From: Elusimicrobiota bacterium
Lineage (GTDB): Bacteria > Elusimicrobiota > Elusimicrobia > Elusimicrobiales > UBA9959
Length of the DNA stretch: 33,649 bases
Assembly (NCBI GenBank): GCA_026388125.1
Contig: JAPLKJ010000296.1
Coordinates: forward strand, 1-33,649
Reading direction: 5' to 3'
The notes below the pieces were generated by a model. It made no database searches, had not been told where the DNA came from, and worked only from the letters and a program-made list of their open reading frames with translations. Below are positions 1,412 to 17,470 of the stretch, piece after piece (within the stretch, counting starts at the first letter, position 1; the number at the start of each line of letters is the position of its first letter). Both the position numbers and the translations under genes were made by a program.

Positions 1412-2785
1412 TTACTTCGCCGCGTCCCAGGCTATGAACTCGTCCCACTTCGTGGCCGAGGCCCAGGCCAGTTCGGAGTAGCCCTCGGCCGCGGCGGAGC
1501 CGGGCAGGTAGACCGCTATGCCGTGCGATTCGGAATAATCCTTGCCGCCCCATCTGGAGAGCTTCGCGCGGTACGTGTCCCAGTCGTCGGGGCTGTTGTC
1601 GTTGCCGCTGTCGGGCTGGTCGTTGAAGCGGTTGTGCTGCACCAGGTCTTTGGCGATATAGCTAAGCAGGTCGGCGGACTTCGCTTTCACGCCCGCATCC
1701 TGCGTTTTCCCCGCCACCAGGCTCACCAGGTGGTACAGGTCCTTATTCTCCGAGATGGAGTAGGACAGGGCCTCCGAGCGCGCGGCCGCCACTTCCGCCT
1801 TCAGGCCGGCGGCCATCACGGCGTCCACCCAGGCGTCCACGCGGACCACCAGGCCGGGCAGGGCCGCGGTCTTTATGAAGCTCTGCGTGGAGCCGGTGCG
1901 CTGCTCCTTATAATGGTCGCTGTACGCGTCCACCGCAACCTTGGCCAGTTCCGCGGGGGTCATGGCGGGCTTCGCCGCCACGGGGACCAGGAAAGTATTG
2001 TAGGTGTAGCCGTCGCCGGGCTCGGTCTCTTCCGAACCTACTATATAGGCCGCGCCATCCTTCAGTTCGTAGTCCACTTCCGGCATCTGCATCAGGCAGG
2101 CGTCCGAACCGTACACGTCCACCCCGCCCATTTCCTTCAGGGCCAGGCCCAGCTGCGGCGTGGTTATGTGGTTGTCGGTCTCGTCGTCGTAGGAGATGCC
2201 TTTATTGACGCGGAACCGCAGGCTTTTTTCCCAGCCGGAGCCGTGGTTCCAGACTATCAGCATATATTTTTTAGCGGGGTATTTCGCTTTGGCCCATTTG
2301 CCGAAAGCTATCAGGCTTTTATAATCGCCCATGTCCGTCTTGCCCAGGTCCTCCACCACTTTCGAAGAAACATGCTCGGTATCGGTATCCTTCTGCACCA
2401 GGTAGCGGCGGGTGCCCGTCCAGTCGCCGTCGGAATCGTCGTAGCCGTCGATGCGGCCGGTCTCGGTAACGATGTTAAGCTTCTCCGTGGAGCCCACCAT
2501 CTCCATCTCGTTCATGTCCTTGAGCGCGTACTGCTCCAGGTTGTTCTTGCCGTTGATGAACACCATTATGGTCCATTCTTTGGAAACTTTCTGCGGGGCC
2601 GCGTGCTGCCCGAACAGCCAGTGCCCCAGCCCTTTTTCGCCGGCGGGCGACGGAGCCGGAACCTGCGCGCCTGAAAGCTCCTCCTTCAGGCCGCCTGTGC
2701 CGCGGTCGAAATCCACGGGGGCCGCGGACGCGGCTGAAATTGAAAAGAACGCCGAAAGCGCTAAAAGCCCGGCTTTATTAAGCAT
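1412..2785 (-). CDS. secreted clostripain-like C11 family cysteine peptidase, copy 1
   Basis: Signal peptide; EWTIMVFINGKNNLE, His motif (IVWNHGSGW), Cys motif (GSDACLMQM), C-terminal WDEFIAW. Confidence 0.9.
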   Translation of the reverse strand: MLNKAGLLALSAFFSISAASAAPVDFDRGTGGLKEELSGAQVPAPSPAGEKGLGHWLFGQHAAPQKVSKEWTIMVFINGKNNLEQYALKDMNEMEMVGSTEKLNIVTETGRIDGYDDSDGDWTGTRRYLVQKDTDTEHVSSKVVEDLGKTDMGDYKSLIAFGKWAKAKYPAKKYMLIVWNHGSGWEKSLRFRVNKGISYDDETDNHITTPQLGLALKEMGGVDVYGSDACLMQMPEVDYELKDGAAYIVGSEETEPGDGYTYNTFLVPVAAKPAMTPAELAKVAVDAYSDHYKEQRTGSTQSFIKTAALPGLVVRVDAWVDAVMAAGLKAEVAAARSEALSYSISENKDLYHLVSLVAGKTQDAGVKAKSADLLSYIAKDLVQHNRFNDQPDSGNDNSPDDWDTYRAKLSRWGGKDYSESHGIAVYLPGSAAAEGYSELAWASATKWDEFIAWDAAK

Positions 2786-2878
2786 GAGTCCTCCAGAAAA
2801 GCATCTTTACTAGTTTAACAGTCCGCGGCCCCGGGCGACAGGGCCGAAAAGCCCAGAGGTTTTTCGCTAAAGGGCCTA

Positions 2879-2910
2879 TAAAAAAGCCGCCCGCTTTCGG
2901 CGGGCGGCTC
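2879..2910 (-). terminator. Rho-independent terminator after C11 copy 2 (AGCCGCCCGC-CGAAA-GCGGGCGGCT + TTTTT)
   Basis: 10-bp perfect stem with T-tract on the minus strand. Confidence 0.85.
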
Positions 2911-2932
2911 ACTAGCTGCGCTGTGCCTGAAC

Positions 2933-4222
2933 TTAAGGCAGCGCCAGCCAGGCTATGAACTCGTCCCAGTTGGAGTACGTGGCCCACTGGAGCTCCGCGT
3001 AGCCGGCCGGGGCGGCGGTACCGGGCAGGTACACCGCTATGCCGTGGGAGTTCTCGTAGTTGGCCGGGGGGTTCCAGTAGCCGCTGCCAGGGCTGTTGGT
3101 GGTGCGGTTATAGCCCACCAGCGTATCGGTGATGTAGCTCATCAGCGCCTGGCCTTTCGCCTTCACGTCGTCGCTCTTGGTTTCGGCCAGCACCAGCTGG
3201 GCGAAGTGGTAGAAATCCTTGTTCTCGGGGTAGGCGTAGCTCTGCGCGGCGCCCATGGCCTTTTTGGCCAGGTCTTTTTCCCCGGCCTGCGTAACGGCGT
3301 AGGCGAAGGCGTTGGAGGCGTCCAGGAAGCCGGGCAGCGCCGCGGTCCGCACGTAGCTCTGCGTGGAGCCTTCCTTGTTGGCGGCGTAATGGTTCGCGTA
3401 AGCGTCCACGGCCACCCGGGCCAGTTCCTCGGGTTCCATGGCGGGCTTGGCCGCAATAGGGGCGAGGAAGTCGTTGTAAGTATAGCCGTCGCCGGGCTCG
3501 GTCTCTTCGGAGCCCACTATGAACTTAACGTAGTTCATTATTTCATAGTCCACTTCGGCCATCTGCATCAGGCAGGCGTCGGAACCGTACACGTCCACGC
3601 CGCCTATCTCCTTAAGGATCTGGGCCATCTGCGGGGTGTTGATGTTGTGCTTGGTCTCGTCGTCGTAGGAAATGCCTTTCGTGGCCTCCAGGCCGCGGGC
3701 TTTTATCCAGCCGGCGCCGTGGTTCCAGAGAATGAGCATATACTTCTTGGCCGGGTAGTTGGCTTTGGCCCAGCTGGCGAAGTCTATAACGCTCTTATAA
3801 TCGCCCATGTCCACCTTGGGGAACTCGGCCAGCACCGGGGAGGTGACCTTCGTGGTGTCCGTGTCCTTCGTAACCAGGTAACGGCGCACGGTCTTCCAGT
3901 CGCCGTCGGAGCTGTCGAAGCCTTTTATGCGGCCCACCTCGGTGACTATGTTCACCTTGTCGGTGGAGCCCACCATTTCCATCTCGTTCATGTCTTTCAG
4001 CGCGAACTGCTCAAGGTTGTTCTTGCCGTTCACGAACACCATTATGGTCCATTCCTTGGCCGGGCGGTGGGCCTTGTCGGCGGCCGGGGCGGGCACGGAC
4101 AGCTCTAATTTGGTTATTTCGCTGTTAAGGTCGAAGGCTTTGCCGTCGAAATTCACTTCCGCCATCAGCACCGGGGCGGAAACGGACAGGACCAGCGCGG
4201 CCGATATCAGTTTATGTATCAT
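2933..4222 (-). CDS. secreted clostripain-like C11 family cysteine peptidase, copy 2
   Basis: Paralogous to copy 1; WNHGAGW and GSDACLMQM; signal peptide. Confidence 0.9.
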   Translation of the reverse strand: MIHKLISAALVLSVSAPVLMAEVNFDGKAFDLNSEITKLELSVPAPAADKAHRPAKEWTIMVFVNGKNNLEQFALKDMNEMEMVGSTDKVNIVTEVGRIKGFDSSDGDWKTVRRYLVTKDTDTTKVTSPVLAEFPKVDMGDYKSVIDFASWAKANYPAKKYMLILWNHGAGWIKARGLEATKGISYDDETKHNINTPQMAQILKEIGGVDVYGSDACLMQMAEVDYEIMNYVKFIVGSEETEPGDGYTYNDFLAPIAAKPAMEPEELARVAVDAYANHYAANKEGSTQSYVRTAALPGFLDASNAFAYAVTQAGEKDLAKKAMGAAQSYAYPENKDFYHFAQLVLAETKSDDVKAKGQALMSYITDTLVGYNRTTNSPGSGYWNPPANYENSHGIAVYLPGTAAPAGYAELQWATYSNWDEFIAWLALP

Positions 4223-4305
4223 TAACTTCCTCCAAAAATATAGCCCTTGCGGGCCTTTTTCGCTATATTAATGATTATTATATCCTTTTATACCAGCCCG
4301 GGCCC

Positions 4306-4337
4306 AAAAAAGAGGGCCGGCTGTTAAGCCGGCCCCC
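4306..4337 (-). terminator. Rho-independent terminator after C11 copy 3 (GGGCCGGCTTAACAGCCGGCCC + TCTTTTTT)
   Basis: 9-bp stem, short loop, T-tract on the minus strand. Confidence 0.8.
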
Positions 4338-4360
4338 CATTCGGTGGTAATACCGCTTTA

Positions 4361-5683
4361 TTAAGGCTGGTTGATCCAGGTGGTGAACTCGTCCCACTTG
4401 GAGGCCTTGGCCCAGGCCAGGTCGGCGTAGCCGCCGGCCAGGGAACCGTTGGGGAAGTAGGCCGCTATGCCCTTGGTAATAGTGTACGCCTTGGGGCCGC
4501 TCCAGTAGCCGCCCTTGTCGTCATGGGCGCGGTTGAGCAGCACCAGCTGGGTGGTGATGTAGCTCATCAGCGCCTGGCCTTTCGCTTTCACGTCCGCGTT
4601 CTTGGAACCTTCCACCACCAGGCGGGTGAAGTCGTACAGGTCGCGGTTCTCGTCCATAGCGAAGTTGATGGCGGCGTCGCGGGAGGTCTTGGCCAGCGCC
4701 TTTTCGCCGGAGGCGATCAGCGCGTCGGTGAAGGCGTCGGTCACGGGCTGCAGCTGGCCTACGGCGGAGGCTTTCACCAGGCTCTGGGTATAGCCCTGCT
4801 CGATAGAGTCGTAATGGTCGCCGTAGCCGTTCACGGCCGCTTTGCCCACTTCCATCGCGGTCATGGTAGGCTTGGCCACCACGGGCCCGAGGAACAGGTC
4901 GTAGGTGTAGCCGTCGCCCGGCTCGGTCTCTTCGGAAGCCACTATATAGTCAACCGAGTCCTTGATCTCGTAATCCACTTCGGCCATCTGCATCAGGCAG
5001 GCGTCGGTGCCGATCACGTCGGTCTTGCCCAGCGCTTTCATGATCAGGCCCATCTGCGGGGTATTGATGTGGTTGCCGCTCTGCTCGTCATAAGAGATGC
5101 CCTTGGCAACGCCGGCCAGCCGCCTGCTTTTTTCCCAGCCTGAGCCGTGGTTCCACAGTATCAGCATATACTTCTTGGCGGGATAGGCGGTCTTGGCCCA
5201 TTTCGCGAAATCGATCACGCTCTGGTAGGAGCCCATGTCCACCTGGCCCAGGTCCTGCAGCATCTTGGAAGTGACCTTGGTAGTGTCGGTATCCTTGGTC
5301 ATGCGGTAGCGGCGCACGCCTTTCCAGTCGCCGTCGGTGGCGTCATAGCCGTCAATGCGGCCGGCTTCCACCACTATGTTCACTTTGTCGGTGGAGCCTA
5401 TCTTCTCCATCTCGTTCATGTCCTTGAGCAGGAAAGGCTCAAGGTCGTTCTTGCCGTTGCCGAAAACCATTATGGTCCACTCCGCCTGGGCCTTTACGGC
5501 GGCGGGTTTGCCGAACAGCCAGTCCCAGATCACGCCTTTGTCCGCGCCGGAGGGCGCCGTTACTTCCGTATTGGAGAGCTCTTTGTTTATGTCGAAGCCG
5601 CCCTTATCGAAATTAACTTCAGCCGCGGCCATAGAAGCGGTCATAGCCAGCGCCAGCGCAGACAGCGATAATTTAGGGATCAT
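4361..5683 (-). CDS. secreted clostripain-like C11 family cysteine peptidase, copy 3 (start reassigned to MIPKLSLSALALAM)
   Basis: ORF 4361-5722; ATG at 5683 has a GGAGG ribosome-binding site and lies downstream of the promoter; WNHGSGW, GTDACLMQM. Confidence 0.88.
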   Translation of the reverse strand: MIPKLSLSALALAMTASMAAAEVNFDKGGFDINKELSNTEVTAPSGADKGVIWDWLFGKPAAVKAQAEWTIMVFGNGKNDLEPFLLKDMNEMEKIGSTDKVNIVVEAGRIDGYDATDGDWKGVRRYRMTKDTDTTKVTSKMLQDLGQVDMGSYQSVIDFAKWAKTAYPAKKYMLILWNHGSGWEKSRRLAGVAKGISYDEQSGNHINTPQMGLIMKALGKTDVIGTDACLMQMAEVDYEIKDSVDYIVASEETEPGDGYTYDLFLGPVVAKPTMTAMEVGKAAVNGYGDHYDSIEQGYTQSLVKASAVGQLQPVTDAFTDALIASGEKALAKTSRDAAINFAMDENRDLYDFTRLVVEGSKNADVKAKGQALMSYITTQLVLLNRAHDDKGGYWSGPKAYTITKGIAAYFPNGSLAGGYADLAWAKASKWDEFTTWINQP

Positions 5684-5722
5684 GGTTAGCCTCCGGGACA
5701 ATGTTGAGAAGTTCACATACAT

Positions 5723-5750
5723 ATTCTAGCTAAACCCTGACCATTAACAA
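5723..5750 (-). promoter_or_regulatory. promoter of C11 copy 3: TTGTTA-16-TAGAAT
   Basis: Minus-strand reading; consistent with the ATG at 5683. Confidence 0.5.
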
Positions 5751-5792
5751 GGAACCTAAGACCCGGTATCAAGGGGCCAAAGGGCCTATAAA

Positions 5793-5828
5793 TATAAAAA
5801 GAAAGGCCGGCGGTTAAGCCGGCCCTTC
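5793..5828 (-). terminator. Rho-independent terminator after C11 copy 4 (GGCCGGC-TTAACC-GCCGGCC + TTTCTTTTTATATTT)
   Basis: 7-bp stem and T-rich tract on the minus strand. Confidence 0.75.
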
Positions 5829-5851
5829 CGTTGCGCGCTGGGCGCTTTAAC

Positions 5852-7108
5852 TTATTTTACGTACCAGGCAATGAACTCGTCCCACTGCGAGGCCTTCGCC
5901 CAGGCCAGTTCGGCGTAGGCGGAGTTCACGGAGTTGGGCATATAGATCGCCAGACCGTGTGAGTCGCTGTAGTTGGCGTTCACGCGGTTGTGCAGTACCA
6001 GCGTGCCGGTCAGGTAATCCTGCAGGGCTTTCGCGGCAGCCTTCACGTTCGCGTCCTTGGAGGAGGCGGAGTAGAGGCTCAGGAAATGCCACAGGTCCTT
6101 GTTCTCGGCGTAGGCATAAGCCTGCGCGCCGCTCATCGCGGTTTTGATCAGGGGTTTTTCGTTGGCGGCCATGGCGGCTTTAACGAAGTTATTGATCGGG
6201 GCTATCAGGCCGTTCATGGCGGAGGCCAGAACGAGGCTCTGCGTGTGGTCCTGGGTACCGTAATGGTCGGCATAGGCGTCCACGGCCAGTTTGCCGAGTT
6301 CGGCGCTGGTCATGGTGGGCTTGGCCGCCAGAGGGCCCAGCAGCAGGTTATAGGTATAACCGTCGCCGGGTTCGGTCTCTTAGGAACCTACTATATAGTC
6401 TACATAGTCCTTTATCTCATAGTTCACTTCGGGCATCTGCATCAGGCAGGCGTCCGAGCCGTAGACGTCTATCTTGCCCATGGCTTTCAGGGCCATTCCC
6501 AGCTGGGGGGTGGTTATGTGGTTGCCGGTCTCGTCATCGTAGGAGATGCCTTTTGCGGCGTCCATGCTGCGGGACTTGATCCAGCCGGCGCCGTGGTTCC
6601 AGACCACCAGCATATAGCGCTTGGCGGGATAAGTGGCCTTGGCCCAGTTGACGAAGTCGATGAGGTGCTTATAATCGCCCATATCGACCTTGCCCAGGTC
6701 TTTTACCACGGGGGAGGCGATCTTGGCCATATTGGCGTCTTTAACCACCAGGTAGCGGCGGGAAGAGATCCAGTTGCCGTCCGAGCTGTCATAGCCGGCT
6801 ATGCGGCCCAGTTCGGTCACAACGTTGACTTTATCGGTGGAGCCTATCATCTCCATCTCGTTCATATCAAGCAGGCCGTACTTTTCAAGGTTGTTCTTGG
6901 CGTTAATGAACACCATTACCGTCCATTCCTTATCAACCTTGGCGTGGGCCGCCTTATCCGCGGCGGGGGCCGCGGGCACGCTCAGTTCGAGAGCGGTTAT
7001 TTCCTGCTGAAGGGTTTTCGTATTGGGGATGTCGAAGTTAACGGCTGCCGACACCATGGTGGATACTGCGGTGATTATCGCGAACGCTGCGGCTGTCTTT
7101 CTAAACAT
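5852..7108 (-). pseudogene. secreted clostripain-like C11 peptidase, copy 4, interrupted by a single in-frame TAA at 6380-6382 (VGS*ETEPGDGYTYN); possible pseudogene or readthrough gene
   Basis: ORFs 6380-7153 and 5852-6313 are in the same frame; the stop replaces a Glu codon (GAA) conserved in the other three copies; start reassigned to MFRKTAAAF at 7108 (GGAGGAG ribosome-binding site). Confidence 0.85.
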
Positions 7109-7143
7109 TACTCCTCCCGTGCTGCGTTTTGGTCTGTAGGCCC

Positions 7144-7268
7144 TTTGGGCCAAGGGCCCTTGAACTTACACCCATATTATAACTCATTATTGACCAGCAT
7201 CAAGGACAAAGTACCCAGATAGTTTTGGGCCAGTGTGCCCATTGCGCTTTGGGCCCTAAGGCCCATGG
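7144..7268. promoter_or_regulatory. cluster of three TTTGGGCC-N3/4-(G/T)GCCC dyads around the copy-4 promoter (7144-7162, 7224-7244, 7248-7268)
   Basis: Direct sequence comparison of the three sites. Confidence 0.45.
7176..7203 (-). promoter_or_regulatory. promoter of C11 copy 4: TTGATG-16-TATAAT
   Basis: Minus-strand reading. Confidence 0.6.
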
Positions 7269-12245: not shown

Positions 12246-13346
12246 ATGACTGAAAAGATCTCGCTGATAGCTGGCCTGCTGCTGATGGCCGCCGGTTATT
12301 TCAGGCTGCATGGTCCGCATTACTCCGAAAACGCGCTGGGAGTTGCGCTGACCCTGATGGGCGCCGGCCTGCTGCTGGTGCTGTTCCCGGCCTACCGGTT
12401 CGCCCTGGCGGCCTCGAAACTGAAGGAGCTGCTGCGCGGGGAGAGTAAGATCGAGAACGAGCTGACCGAGATACGGCTGCGCTTCATCTGCATAGCAGCG
12501 GGCGTTGCCGGCGCGGTGGGGCTGGAGTTCTCCCCCGGCGGGTTTAACTACTGGACGCTGGGTTTTTCGGGATTCATCCTGGCCGCGGGGCTGGTCTACG
12601 TGGCAGGCTACGCCCGCCTGAAAGGAGCGGCCGGCCTTTCCAACACGCTGCGCCTGCTGCTCAGCGCGGCGGCTCTATTCGGGGGCATGGTCAGCGTTAT
12701 CACGCTGATCCAGCAGCTTTCCGGCGCCTCCGATATGCCGACCCGGTGGAACATCTATTCTTTCCTCGGCCTGGCAGGCCTGGCCGCAAGCGTCTACGCC
12801 GGATATTACGGCATGGCGTACCAGACCAACACGGACATCCTCGAGACGCTGCGGCCATTCGGCTTCACTCCCGCCGACAGCGGCCTGCTGGGCAAGGACG
12901 GCAGATACGACGCCCGCGGCGTGTGGGAAGGCGTGGAAACGCTGGTGAACGTGAACCAGACCGAAGCGCAGGAGAACTGCCCCGCCGGTTTCTATCTGGA
13001 GATAAGCTGCGCGGCCGCCGGCTGGGACGGGCGCCGGCTGCTGGTGCACCCGGCCGGATATTTCAACCGGCCTTTTGGCGCGCCGCTCACCCTGCCGCGG
13101 GCCGAGGCGCCCGCGGGCTGGGAGAAATACGGTGTTTACTGCGACCCCCCCGAAGCCGCCCCGTCCCTGCTGGCGGTAATAGGCGGCCCAGGCGGGCCGA
13201 TGCTCGGTGCCGGCACGGATTTTTCCTACCTGCTGCTGGATAAAGGCCGCCTGGTCCTGGGCGTTTCCTGCGCCGGGCACCCCGAGCCCGGCCGCCTGAA
13301 GCGGACAATGACGCTGGCCGCCGACTGCGCCAGACACCTGGCCTGA
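12246..13346 (+). CDS. hypothetical membrane protein (start reassigned to MTEKISLIAGLL; the predicted upstream extension overlaps the inverted repeat)
   Basis: ORF 12147-13346, several TM helices at the N-terminus. Confidence 0.65.
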   Translation: MTEKISLIAGLLLMAAGYFRLHGPHYSENALGVALTLMGAGLLLVLFPAYRFALAASKLKELLRGESKIENELTEIRLRFICIAAGVAGAVGLEFSPGGFNYWTLGFSGFILAAGLVYVAGYARLKGAAGLSNTLRLLLSAAALFGGMVSVITLIQQLSGASDMPTRWNIYSFLGLAGLAASVYAGYYGMAYQTNTDILETLRPFGFTPADSGLLGKDGRYDARGVWEGVETLVNVNQTEAQENCPAGFYLEISCAAAGWDGRRLLVHPAGYFNRPFGAPLTLPRAEAPAGWEKYGVYCDPPEAAPSLLAVIGGPGGPMLGAGTDFSYLLLDKGRLVLGVSCAGHPEPGRLKRTMTLAADCARHLA

Positions 13347-13351
13347 GGGCC

Positions 13352-13368
13352 GGGGACGCTTCGTCCCC
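13352..13368. repeat. short hairpin GGGGACG-CTT-CGTCCCC, same motif as the two REP-like repeats
   Basis: 7-bp perfect arms. Confidence 0.6.
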
Positions 13369-13372
13369 TCTA

Positions 13373-14896
13373 CTATTCTAAACGCAATTCGCCGGTGACC
13401 CCGATCCCTTTTAGAAAAGTAAGGTCGTGGGAGATCACGAGCAGCGCGCCCTCGAAGCGGGCCAGGGCGGCCTCCAGGAATTCGAGGTTCACGATATCGA
13501 GATTATTGGTGGGCTCGTCCAGTATCAGCAGCTGCGGCGGCGGGTCGGAGATAAGTATCTTGGCCAGCGACGCCCGCAGCCTTTCTCCCCCGCTTAAAGT
13601 GTCCACGCGCTGAAGGGCCTTGTCGCCCTGGAACAGGAACTGGGCCAGGAGGTTACGCACCTCCACCTCGGTCTTCCTGGAACCGCTCCTTACATTGTCC
13701 AGCACGCTGCGCCCGGCGTCGAGCAAGGTGGAGTTCTGGTCCACGAAGCCGTAAGCCACGCCGCCCAGCTTCAGCTCGCCGGAGATGTCGCCGTCCAGCT
13801 CCCTGAACCCGGTGAGCAGGTTGAGCAAGGTGGTCTTGCCCGAACCATTGCGCCCCGCTATGGCTATGCGCGCGGGCCCGTGCATCTCGAACGTCACGCT
13901 CTGCGCCCAAAGGTCGCGTTCCATGCCCGCGTACCTGAAGTTCAGGTCGCGCGCGGCGAACACCAGCTTGGAGGCGGGCAGGGCGGTCTCCGGAAACTCC
14001 GCGTAGATGACGGGGTCTGTCTTCTGCCGCTCGAAGGCGCTGCGGGCGGAATCCACTTTCGCCTGAATGTCCTCGTCGGCGGCCGACCGTATTTTGCCCA
14101 TGGTTTTCTGCGCGCGCATTTTTTTGCCGCCGAGCAGGATCTTCGGCGCCCCTCCCTTGGCGGCCGCCTTCTGCCCGCGGCGCATCCGCTTTTCCTGGGC
14201 GCGCAGCTTGTCGGCCCTTTCGCCGGCCGCTTTGTCGCGCTCCCGTGCGGCCTGGTCCAGGTCGCCGGCCAGCCGGGCCCGCTCCCGGGCGCGCTCGCCT
14301 TCATAAAAGGTCCAGTTCCCGCCGAAAACGGCCAGCCCCTGGTTGGACAGCTCCAGGATGGCGTCCGCTTCGTCCAGCAGTTCCCTGTCGTGCGAAATTA
14401 TAAGCAGCCCGCGGCGCGTAAGGCGGACGAAAGCCAGCACGCTTTCCCGCGCCTGCCTGTCGAGATTGTTAGTAGGCTCGTCCAGCACTATGAAGTCGGC
14501 CCCCGACGCCAGCTGTTTAAGGAACCGCACCCTGGTCCACTCGCCGCCGCTCAGGGAGGCGCAGGAGGCCGACGGGTTTATGTCTTTCTGCAGGGCCGCC
14601 ACCGTGCCGGCGTCGGCCGGGGCGATGCCTGCCCACAGCCCGGAAAGATACTCTTCCACCGTTATATCTGGCGGGGGCTCTATCTGGTCGAAATAGGCCA
14701 CCTGGGAATCTTTTTTTATCCGGCCGGCTGCGGGAGAAAGCCTGCCCTGCGCCAGCCGCGCGAGCGTGGATTTGCCGATGCCGTTAGGGCCGATGAGGCC
14801 GTATTTCCTGCCCGACTCCAGCGAAAGGCTCAGGCCTTTGAATACCGCGCTGCCGTTCGGCCATTCGAAATCCACGGAGTTGAAGATTATCGACAT
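13373..14896 (-). CDS. ABC-F family ATP-binding protein (two nucleotide-binding domains)
   Basis: GPNGIGKST, LSGGEWTRV, LDEPTNNLD; second GRNGSGKTT, LSGGERLRAS, LDEPTNNLD. Confidence 0.93.
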   Translation of the reverse strand: MSIIFNSVDFEWPNGSAVFKGLSLSLESGRKYGLIGPNGIGKSTLARLAQGRLSPAAGRIKKDSQVAYFDQIEPPPDITVEEYLSGLWAGIAPADAGTVAALQKDINPSASCASLSGGEWTRVRFLKQLASGADFIVLDEPTNNLDRQARESVLAFVRLTRRGLLIISHDRELLDEADAILELSNQGLAVFGGNWTFYEGERARERARLAGDLDQAARERDKAAGERADKLRAQEKRMRRGQKAAAKGGAPKILLGGKKMRAQKTMGKIRSAADEDIQAKVDSARSAFERQKTDPVIYAEFPETALPASKLVFAARDLNFRYAGMERDLWAQSVTFEMHGPARIAIAGRNGSGKTTLLNLLTGFRELDGDISGELKLGGVAYGFVDQNSTLLDAGRSVLDNVRSGSRKTEVEVRNLLAQFLFQGDKALQRVDTLSGGERLRASLAKILISDPPPQLLILDEPTNNLDIVNLEFLEAALARFEGALLVISHDLTFLKGIGVTGELRLE

Positions 14897-15058
14897 ATGG
14901 GGTATCCAGGTAGCCTATACAATTTTTGCCGATTATTCAATAATTCGAAAGCAGCGCCAGAACCGCCTGCACCCGGTCCGTTTCCCCGGATGGCACCATA
15001 CATTGCACCGCCCCGCTTTAGCGCTTCACGAAATATTGTAGAATTGTCAATGAGAAAT

Positions 15059-15096
15059 GCCGACGTAGCTCAGCGGTAGAGCAACCGCCTTGTAAG
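15059..15096 (+). pseudogene. truncated tRNA-Thr 5' half (GCCGACGTAGCTCAGCGGTAGAGCAACCGCCTTGTAAG), diverges after the anticodon loop
   Basis: 37 of 38 nt identical to the 5' half of the intact tRNA at 16284. Confidence 0.9.
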
Positions 15097-15310
15097 CCCG
15101 CAGAAGTATTCAGTTGGAGTGAGCCCGGCTTAGTTCCCCGTCGTAAACCCAAAACCTAATTTCGTCAGAGTAAGCCTGATTACGTTGGAATCAGTTGGTC
15201 GGATTGCACCAGGAATTGCACCACTTCAGGGCTTAATGCCACAAAGCCAAAAGGATATAATAGAACTTAGTTTGGGGAACCACTAAGAGACAGGGTTTGA
15301 GGTATTACTG

Positions 15311-16162
15311 ATGATAAAGAAATTGATTGGGGTAATCGTGCTGCTCACTGTAGCATTAAAGGTTCACGCGATAGCCAATAATCAGTTAGATATTTGGGGC
15401 AATTATAGTCTATGGAGTAATTATAGCCTGACAAATAAGAACGTCAAATATTTATCTGCTATTGAAACCAGGAAACACAGATCCAAAACCTATGAAACAA
15501 CCTATATTTATGATAAAGCGGGGCATTTGATTCATGAGAGCAATTCTATAATTAACGGGGAGCAGAATATTAAGACGGAGACCGTGTATGAGTATGCTGA
15601 CAATAAGCTGATTAAAATTACAGAGAAATCCCCTTACGGCCAAAACTCACGCATATCAATAATCAAATATAGTGATAAGACGAAGCAGATTTTGCAATCT
15701 AATGTCGACCCAAAAACCGGGGGAATTAAAGACGAAGATATTACGTATACATACAATGACAATGGTTTATTGATTGAACGTGACGCTCCATTTGAGCCTT
15801 CAGATGAAAAATTTACATATGATAAAAACGGACTACTTATATATTCTGAATACCTCGGGGATGACTCTAAAACCACAATTAAGATTACCAGAACAATCGA
15901 CGAAAAAAACAAGATAAAGGAGGAAAAAAGAGTCAAGAATACTCGCCATCTGGAAGAAAAAGAGGTAACTCGCGTCACAGTGGTGGATTATATTTATAAG
16001 GGCGACAACTGTGTGCAAGAAGAGAAGAACGAAGTCACTGGTTCAAAAAAGTCACTCAAAGAACTAATTAAGTATGAGTATGACAAAAATAATGAAATAA
16101 AAAGCGAAGATCACTTTGATGCTAAAGGGCAAAATATAAAAAAGATTGTTTACACCTATTAA
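15311..16162 (+). CDS. secreted YD/RHS-repeat-like hypothetical protein (AT-rich cargo)
   Basis: Signal peptide; repeated YxYDxxGxLI/TYDKNGLLIY units; composition clearly AT-richer than the surroundings. Confidence 0.75.
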   Translation: MIKKLIGVIVLLTVALKVHAIANNQLDIWGNYSLWSNYSLTNKNVKYLSAIETRKHRSKTYETTYIYDKAGHLIHESNSIINGEQNIKTETVYEYADNKLIKITEKSPYGQNSRISIIKYSDKTKQILQSNVDPKTGGIKDEDITYTYNDNGLLIERDAPFEPSDEKFTYDKNGLLIYSEYLGDDSKTTIKITRTIDEKNKIKEEKRVKNTRHLEEKEVTRVTVVDYIYKGDNCVQEEKNEVTGSKKSLKELIKYEYDKNNEIKSEDHFDAKGQNIKKIVYTY

Positions 16163-16283
16163 ACAACAAAAAAATATATTTGCGGTGATTAAGTTGCTTT
16201 CCGGTTCTTCTCGAATTGCACCACTGACCGCACCACGCCACTTTAGCACAGCGCGAAATATTGTAGAATTGTCAATGAAGAAC

Positions 16284-16355
16284 GCCGACGTAGCTCAGCG
16301 GTAGAGCACCCGCCTTGTAAGCGGTAGGGCGAGAGTTCAATTCTCTCCGTCGGCT
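16284..16355 (+). tRNA. tRNA-Thr (anticodon UGU)
   Basis: Cloverleaf by eye: GCCGACG/CGTCGGC acceptor, GCTC/GAGC D-stem, CTTGTAA loop, GAGAG-TTCAATT-CTCTC T-arm; C27-U43 mismatch. Confidence 0.93.
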
Positions 16356-16396
16356 GTTTTTTTTTGCCCGGTATACCTTCAACAAGGATAAAACGA

Positions 16397-17470
16397 ATGA
16401 ACAAGCTACTGCTCCCGGCCCTGCTGCTTTTCTGTGCGTGCGCGCAGGCCTCCGCCGAAGCCACCTCCAAGCTCAAGGTGGATATTTACGGCTTCGTCAA
16501 AACCGATATCAGCTATTCCGACCACGGCACCGGCACCAACGAGTACCGCACCTACGCCGCCGGCCGCGCGGACAAAGCGTTCCGCGCTTCGGCCAGGGGC
16601 ACCCGCTTCGGCATGAACATAAGCAGCGGCGCCAGCGTGAACGGAAAGATAGAGATGGATTTCCTGGGCCTGACCGAGAGCCTGGGCGGCACGGCCGGCA
16701 CTACCGCCGATGTGCGCCTGCGCCACGCCTATGTGGCGTTCAAAACGGGCAAGACCGAGATACTGGCCGGCCAGACCTTTTACCCGATAACCGCCGACAT
16801 CCCCGAAACCTATAACGATTATTTCCTCGGCCATTCCGGGGCGCTGTGGTCCAGGGCGCCGCAGCTGCGCGCCACCTACGTCCCGGTAAGGAAACTTAAA
16901 ATTATAGCCGCCGTGGTGCGGCCCTCCGCCAAACTTACCGACGCGGAAGGCACCCGTTCCGCCCTGCCCGGCGTGCAGGGCAAGATAGAGAAAGAATTCG
17001 GCAAGGCCAGGTTCAGCGTGGCCGGCGCGGCCGGCGTCTGGAAAAGCACCTTCAGCGCGCAGACCGCGGACAGCTCGGTGCTGGTAGCGGGCTTCAATGT
17101 GCCGCTCTCGCCCTTTACCGTTTACGGCGAAGCCTGGGCAGGCCGGAACCTTTCGGATTTCCTGGGCGGTCTCGGCAATACCGGCTACGGCGCCAACGCC
17201 GTGCCCGGGAAAGGCGGCTACCTGGCGCTTAAGTTCAAGCCGAAAGATACGCTCTGGTTCAACCTGATCTACGGCGTGGACGATCCGAGGAATTCCAAAG
17301 TGCTGACCAAGGGCAAAACGAGGAACTCCACCGCCATAGCCAACGCCTCGGCACTGTTCTACGACTGCGTGGAAACGGGCGTGGAAGTTTCGGCGCTGAA
17401 CACTGAATACAAAGACCTTCAGAACAGGTCGGCCATGATCTATCAGCTGACCGTAAAGCTGCTGTTTTAA
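16397..17470 (+). CDS. outer-membrane beta-barrel/porin-like protein (DcaP-like)
   Basis: Signal peptide MNKLLLPALLLFCACAQASAEA; VDIYGFVKTDISY..., alternating beta-strand pattern, C-terminal aromatic ending VKLLF. Confidence 0.7.
   Translation: MNKLLLPALLLFCACAQASAEATSKLKVDIYGFVKTDISYSDHGTGTNEYRTYAAGRADKAFRASARGTRFGMNISSGASVNGKIEMDFLGLTESLGGTAGTTADVRLRHAYVAFKTGKTEILAGQTFYPITADIPETYNDYFLGHSGALWSRAPQLRATYVPVRKLKIIAAVVRPSAKLTDAEGTRSALPGVQGKIEKEFGKARFSVAGAAGVWKSTFSAQTADSSVLVAGFNVPLSPFTVYGEAWAGRNLSDFLGGLGNTGYGANAVPGKGGYLALKFKPKDTLWFNLIYGVDDPRNSKVLTKGKTRNSTAIANASALFYDCVETGVEVSALNTEYKDLQNRSAMIYQLTVKLLF

What the first reader, a model, noticed from the sequence alone, without database searches (positions are those of the whole stretch)
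15005..16355. Element integrated in the tRNA-Thr anticodon region that replaces the 5' half of the tRNA and its promoter region
Seen: a ~92-bp direct repeat (15005-15096 vs 16230-16321, collinear, 1225 bp offset, ~11 mismatches) covers upstream DNA plus the tRNA 5' half and stops at TTGTAAG in the anticodon loop. The left copy then runs into unrelated sequence; the right copy continues into a proper 3' half. Knowledge: tyrosine-integrase elements usually use a tRNA gene and most restore the 3' end. Inference: here the element supplied the promoter-side half and the host kept only the 3' half. No integrase is recognisable, so it may be a minimal passenger element moved in trans or a remnant.
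Basis: partly seen in the sequence, partly recalled or inferred. Interest (0 to 1): 0.75.

Follow-up and report, generated by a model that had tools for sequence, protein, structure and literature searches.

The report
Integrase-less element in tRNA-Thr 5' half
A 1.2-kb piece of foreign DNA sits inside the only tRNA-Thr(UGU) gene found in this uncultured Elusimicrobia genome; it is most likely what is left of a virus-like integrating element that, unusually for bacteria, supplies the front half and promoter of the tRNA instead of the back half.

Summary
The repeat (111 bp, 18 mismatches, offset 1225) is an attL/attR pair. The left copy is the host's displaced tRNA-Thr 5' half; the right copy, supplied by the element, completes the tRNA. 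A congener (G010) shares the left flank and left end and holds a 6.1-kb element at the same site, with an intact tyrosine integrase. Its gene runs into the tRNA and stops at TAG in the D-loop, so the 'upstream DNA' in the repeat is the 3' end of an integrase gene. Window and G010 align up to one pair of arm-like repeats (15224) and again from the next (16214); only the interior differs. The window lacks integrase and carries one YD-repeat-like secreted-protein gene with no relative in 342 genomes of the phylum. Related integrases lie just 5' of tRNA-Val, Phe, Tyr, Leu, Arg, Lys and Asp genes, clustered on the tree. Most likely it is a decayed, CIME-like derivative whose right end persists because it is now the tRNA's promoter; mobilisation in trans is possible but unshown. 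Users of the 5' half are known but rare (159 of 3919 islands in Islander).

The parts
14933..15058 (+). 3' end of an older integrase gene (tail A), scar of an earlier occupant; promoter-like TTTAGC (15017) and TAGAAT (15039) lie in it
   Evidence: tblastn of the G010 integrase: 14933-15076 (residues 336-382, E 2.2e-6); 14987-15076 (353-382, 70%, E 3e-7); motif positions
15059..15097 (+). displaced 5' half of the host tRNA-Thr (attL); identical in G010
15098..15224 (+). left end of the element, ending in two arm-like repeats ATTGCACCA (15203-15211, 15215-15223)
   Evidence: 96.1% identical to G010; same module in G002 and in G155, another genus; repeats. Role as integrase arm sites is inferred
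15225..16213 (.). interior, unrelated to the 5.9-kb interior of the G010 element; G+C about 35%
15311..16162 (+). cargo ORF, 283 aa, N-terminal hydrophobic stretch (signal-peptide-like, by eye), YD/RHS-repeat-like; orphan
   Evidence: ORF; TIGR01643 22.9 bits over cut-off 15.8, PF05593 E 0.001 below cut-off; no relative in 342 genomes of the phylum or in phages
16209..16283 (+). 3' end of an integrase gene (right tail) with arm-like repeats at 16215 and, degenerate, 16227; promoter-like TTTAGC 16242 and TAGAAT 16264, presumed tRNA promoter
   Evidence: tblastn 16209-16301 to residues 352-382, E 4e-5; motifs; only 75.7% identical to the G010 tail
16284..16322 (+). 5' half of tRNA-Thr supplied by the element (attR)
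16323..16355 (+). 3' half of tRNA-Thr kept by the host

Best explanation
A tyrosine integrase that recombines at the anticodon stem-loop of tRNA-Thr(UGU) inserted an element of the phage or satellite type. [quoted passage not shown] Integration pushes the host's own 5' half and promoter to the far end (attL) and rebuilds the tRNA at attR with the element's 5' half and the promoter-like sequence in the integrase tail. In this genome integrase and other genes were lost, or exchanged with a second element, leaving both att ends around one foreign secreted-protein gene: a CIME-like derivative. The right end is probably kept because it is now the promoter of what looks like a single-copy tRNA. Shown by sequence: attL/attR structure, integrase tails, the G010 counterpart with integrase. 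Inferred: arm binding, exact crossover, promoter use, reason for retention, order of losses.
For: G010: same flank and left end, 6.1-kb element with integrase (PF00589 E 2.6e-29) that ends inside the tRNA. Window and G010 differ only between arm-like repeats. Left end 96.1% but right tail 75.7% identical, host genes 94.5-95%, so the window's right end comes from another integrase gene. G011 keeps a broken integrase tail in front of tRNA-Thr. G002 has the same left end with other cargo and no integrase found. One tRNA-Thr(TGT) among the tRNAs read in this assembly. The only close relative of the G010 integrase in the own genome (C23, 45%) sits at tRNA-Val and has different repeats, TTGGACACC, so no cognate enzyme was found.
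Against: Both sets of arm-like repeats survive and the breakpoints abut them, which chance decay need not give. The left end has no obvious reason to survive. The consensus scan does not call the tRNA promoter. No intermediate between G010 and the window is known, and the parent of the right end was not found.
Confidence: 0.62

Rival explanations
1. A minimal non-autonomous passenger: cargo between intact attP arms, moved in trans by a related integrase.
For: Both core halves and arm-like repeats on both sides are present and the interior change stops at the arms; the cargo ORF is intact, foreign in G+C and unique in the phylum.
Against: No second copy of cargo or left end in the own genome; no integrase with matching repeats in the assembly; the second right arm repeat is degenerate and G010 has a third that the window lacks.
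Confidence: 0.2
2. Accretion and deletion: a second element entered the tRNA of the first, and a deletion from inside one to inside the other left the first element's left end with the second's right end.
For: Left end is as similar to G010 as host DNA while the right tail is not; the left copy is already the scar of a still older occupant, so serial occupancy happened here. This is a specific form of the best explanation.
Against: Entry of one element that was already chimaeric, or later exchange of the interior, would give the same pattern; there is no intermediate.
Confidence: 0.4
3. Two ancestral tandem tRNA-Thr genes with an internal deletion or insertion, no site-specific integration.
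For: In G002 the right copy carries 213 bp of host upstream DNA, which looks like a tandem duplication.
Against: No congener locus read has two intact tRNA-Thr(TGT) genes in tandem; G010 has an integrase in the interval; the half tRNA is followed by the same left-end module in four genomes of two genera.
Confidence: 0.04

Closest known systems
Genomic islands with a displaced 5' tDNA fragment (Islander, PMC4383910)
   Same: Tyrosine-integrase element at the anticodon region, with the 5' fragment of the tRNA gene displaced upstream of the intact tRNA; 159 of 3919 islands are of this kind
   Different: Islander requires an integrase gene; the window has none. Integrase tail in the tRNA promoter position was not looked up there
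pTN3/TKV4-type archaeal integrative plasmids (PMC5495485, PMC8371274)
   Same: [quoted passage not shown] the tRNA is separated from its original promoter
   Different: Archaeal; the integrase gene is disrupted by integration, whereas the G010 integrase stop lies before the crossover so the gene stays whole
CIMEs, cis-mobilizable elements of the ICE/IME literature (PMC5704250)
   Same: attL and attR kept, integration genes lost, same site reused by later elements
   Different: The relative here (G010) has replication but no conjugation genes recognised; mobilisation not shown
Phage satellites such as PICIs (considered for the G010 element)
   Same: Small; integrase, AlpA-like HTH, replication initiator, helicase loader, no structural genes recognised
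   Different: No helper or packaging evidence; not filed as a PICI

Membership tests
Integrative element at a tRNA gene (tyrosine-integrase type) | Target tRNA rebuilt at one end, fragment of it displaced to the other, same orientation | tested here: met
Integrative element at a tRNA gene (tyrosine-integrase type) | Integrase gene on board | tested here: not met
   Only the last about 30 codons remain in the window; present in G010
5'-tDNA-fragment class | 5' fragment upstream of the intact tRNA | tested here: met
   15059-15097 upstream of 16284-16355
CIME | attL and attR kept, integration genes lost | tested here: met
CIME | Derived from an ICE or IME | tested here: inconclusive
   Relative in G010 carries int, HTH, replication genes; no conjugation family among the nine proteins scanned
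CIME | Mobilised by a cognate element | not testable with these tools
   Needs circle reads or an excision assay
[quoted passage not shown]
pTN3-type integrase | Integrase gene disrupted on integration | tested here: not met
   G010 integrase ends at the TAG of the D-loop, before the crossover

The most novel reading that the evidence does not exclude
A minimal cargo module bounded only by attP arms and half a tRNA gene, moved in trans by integrases whose own 3' coding end doubles as the promoter of the target tRNA, so that the host comes to depend on the element's right end.
Probability: 0.18. Interest if true: 0.65.

Novelty: new variant of a known kind. Interest (0 to 1): 0.46.

Why it matters
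Most tRNA-borne elements leave the host promoter in charge of the tRNA. Here a bacterial integrase lineage, seen in Elusimicrobiota and, by gene order, in Acidobacteriota, Zixibacteria and Myxococcota, lies on the promoter side; in the Thr elements of the window, G010 and G011 the presumed tRNA promoter lies in the 3' end of the integrase gene. That gives a simple, testable reason why integrase tails persist after the rest of an element has gone: removing them would silence what looks like a single-copy tRNA. Island finders that demand an integrase gene would miss such loci.

Tried and rejected
A third integrase tail in front of the cargo (15199-15285): not above shuffles (117 and 317 of 500 reach the score). 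Structure of the cargo protein: single-sequence model, mean pLDDT 44.5, too poor for a fold search. Cargo relatives: none in genus, phylum or phages. Viral-contig scans: the server gave no answer. Strict empty site: not found, left flank shared only with G010. Left end for the tRNA-Val integrase of the own genome: no half-tRNA repeat on the 39 kb of its contig searched. Two literature searches were malformed, one found nothing, and Williams 2002 is not held.

Full report
Observation. The repeat is real: 92 bp with 11 mismatches at the stated coordinates, 111 bp with 18 mismatches when extended (14987-15097 vs 16212-16322). One intact tRNA-Thr(TGT) lies at 16284-16355. The interior of the 1225-bp unit is low in G+C (about 35% against about 63%) and holds one 283-codon ORF.

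What the repeat is. There the interval holds a tyrosine integrase (382 aa, PF00589 E 2.6e-29), an HTH/excisionase-like gene, a DnaC-like helicase loader and an O-like replication initiator. The integrase gene runs toward the tRNA and its stop codon is the TAG of the D-loop, so the DNA in front of the tRNA is the 3' end of the integrase gene. In the window both copies of the repeat begin with such a tail: 14987-15076 (E 3e-7) and 16209-16301 (E 4e-5), the left one reaching 14933. The left tail is therefore best read as the scar of an older occupant of the same tRNA. The ABC-F gene beside it, found in the genus only in G000 and G010 at the cut-off used, may be older cargo; that is a guess.

Comparison with G010. 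The two genomes align, at 94.5-95% in the flanking genes, up to window 15224 and again from 16214; between them 989 bp in the window face 5.9 kb in G010 without similarity. The breakpoints abut direct repeats ATTGCACCA (15203, 15215, 16215; 3 found in the window, 0.12 expected) that look like arm-type integrase sites (inference). The left end is as similar as host DNA (96.1%), the right tail is not (75.7%), so the two right ends come from different integrase genes.

Which half belongs to whom. In G002, and in G155 of another genus, the half tRNA stands behind an ordinary host-type upstream region without a recognisable integrase tail and is followed by the same left-end module with two arm-like repeats. 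The left copy is thus the host side. Joined to the host 3' half it gives a normal tRNA-Thr(TGT) one base from the genes of G001 and G031. The present tRNA has C at gene position 26, where the left copy and those congener genes have A, and ARAGORN then draws one pair fewer in the anticodon stem. If that difference predates integration, the crossover lies at 15085-15097.

Breadth. Related integrases in the genus lie 5' of tRNA-Val (own genome C23), tRNA-Phe (G023) and tRNA-Tyr (G004), in the same orientation, with remnants before tRNA-Val in G027 and, about 1.4 kb away, tRNA-Phe in G018. In G004 tRNA positions 2-40 are repeated 29 kb away, with a 21-bp arm-like repeat near both copies. Of 80 relatives kept from public genomes, 16 have a tRNA in the same orientation starting within 36 bp of the integrase stop and 15 have one in the opposite orientation downstream. 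With labelled Elusimicrobia loci added, 18 '5-prime' and 16 '3-prime' rows need 3 changes on the tree against a shuffled mean of 11.4; near-identical rows inflate such clustering. Gene order is only a proxy: a repeated 5' half was seen in the window, G010, G002 and G004, as a half tRNA without its partner in G155, and weakly in Acidicapsa (28 bp). A G028 integrase of this family is an ordinary 3' user, with 49 bp of tRNA-Gly repeated, so the habit is not fixed.

Why the ends persist. Among the tRNA genes read in this assembly, estimated 95% complete, there is one tRNA-Thr(TGT). A promoter-like TTTAGC-16-TAGAAT lies in the right integrase tail (16242-16269), though the consensus scan did not call it. 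If it drives the tRNA, selection would keep the right end. The left end has no such reason; its survival may be chance or a sign of continued mobility, and these data cannot decide.

Literature. Islander lists 159 islands with a 5' tDNA fragment and 3760 with a 3' fragment (PMC4383910). pTN3-type archaeal integrases use the 5' half and separate the tRNA from its promoter (PMC5495485), a situation 'seldomly encountered in bacteria' according to a review (PMC8371274). Elements that keep attL and attR but lose integration and transfer genes are called CIMEs (PMC5704250).

Verdict. A real, integrase-less derivative of an integrative element that uses the 5' half of tRNA-Thr; remnant more likely than active passenger. 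The kind is known but rare. The integrase tail in the tRNA promoter position, the serial occupancy and the clade-level gene order make it a variant worth recording.

Noticed in passing
L086 (G002:C26) 13000-17270: Second integrase-less interval at a tRNA-Thr(TGT): half tRNA and left-end module, about 4 kb with SLFN AlbA_2, RecG-C-like and DUF6880 genes, then the intact tRNA; the right copy carries 213 bp of host upstream DNA (start of a DJ-1-like gene, named by eye) instead of an integrase tail.
   Followed up: partly
L229 (G155:C17) 5215-5388: Half tRNA-Thr plus left-end module in another genus; ARAGORN finds no tRNA on the contig from 36000 to its end, so the element is long or its right end is lost. 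A reverse transcriptase gene lies about 4 kb inside.
   Followed up: partly
L081 (G004:C90) around 6166-6254 (-): Integrase ORF reading through the whole tRNA-Tyr gene (tail ...GQVAEWLIAPDCKSGVLRTAKVRILPCPF), so its C-terminus would change on excision.
   Followed up: no
window 13373-14896 (-): ABC-F ATPase gene next to the old integrase tail; best NCBIfam match is the ribosomal-protection-like ABC-F family, below its cut-off; in the genus only here and in G010 at E <= 1e-150.
   Followed up: partly
window 1412-7153 (-): Tandem set of related genes for secreted proteins of about 430-460 aa (4 copies, the last apparently split in two ORFs: 5852-6313 and 6380-7153), also present in G010. Family not looked up.
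   Followed up: no
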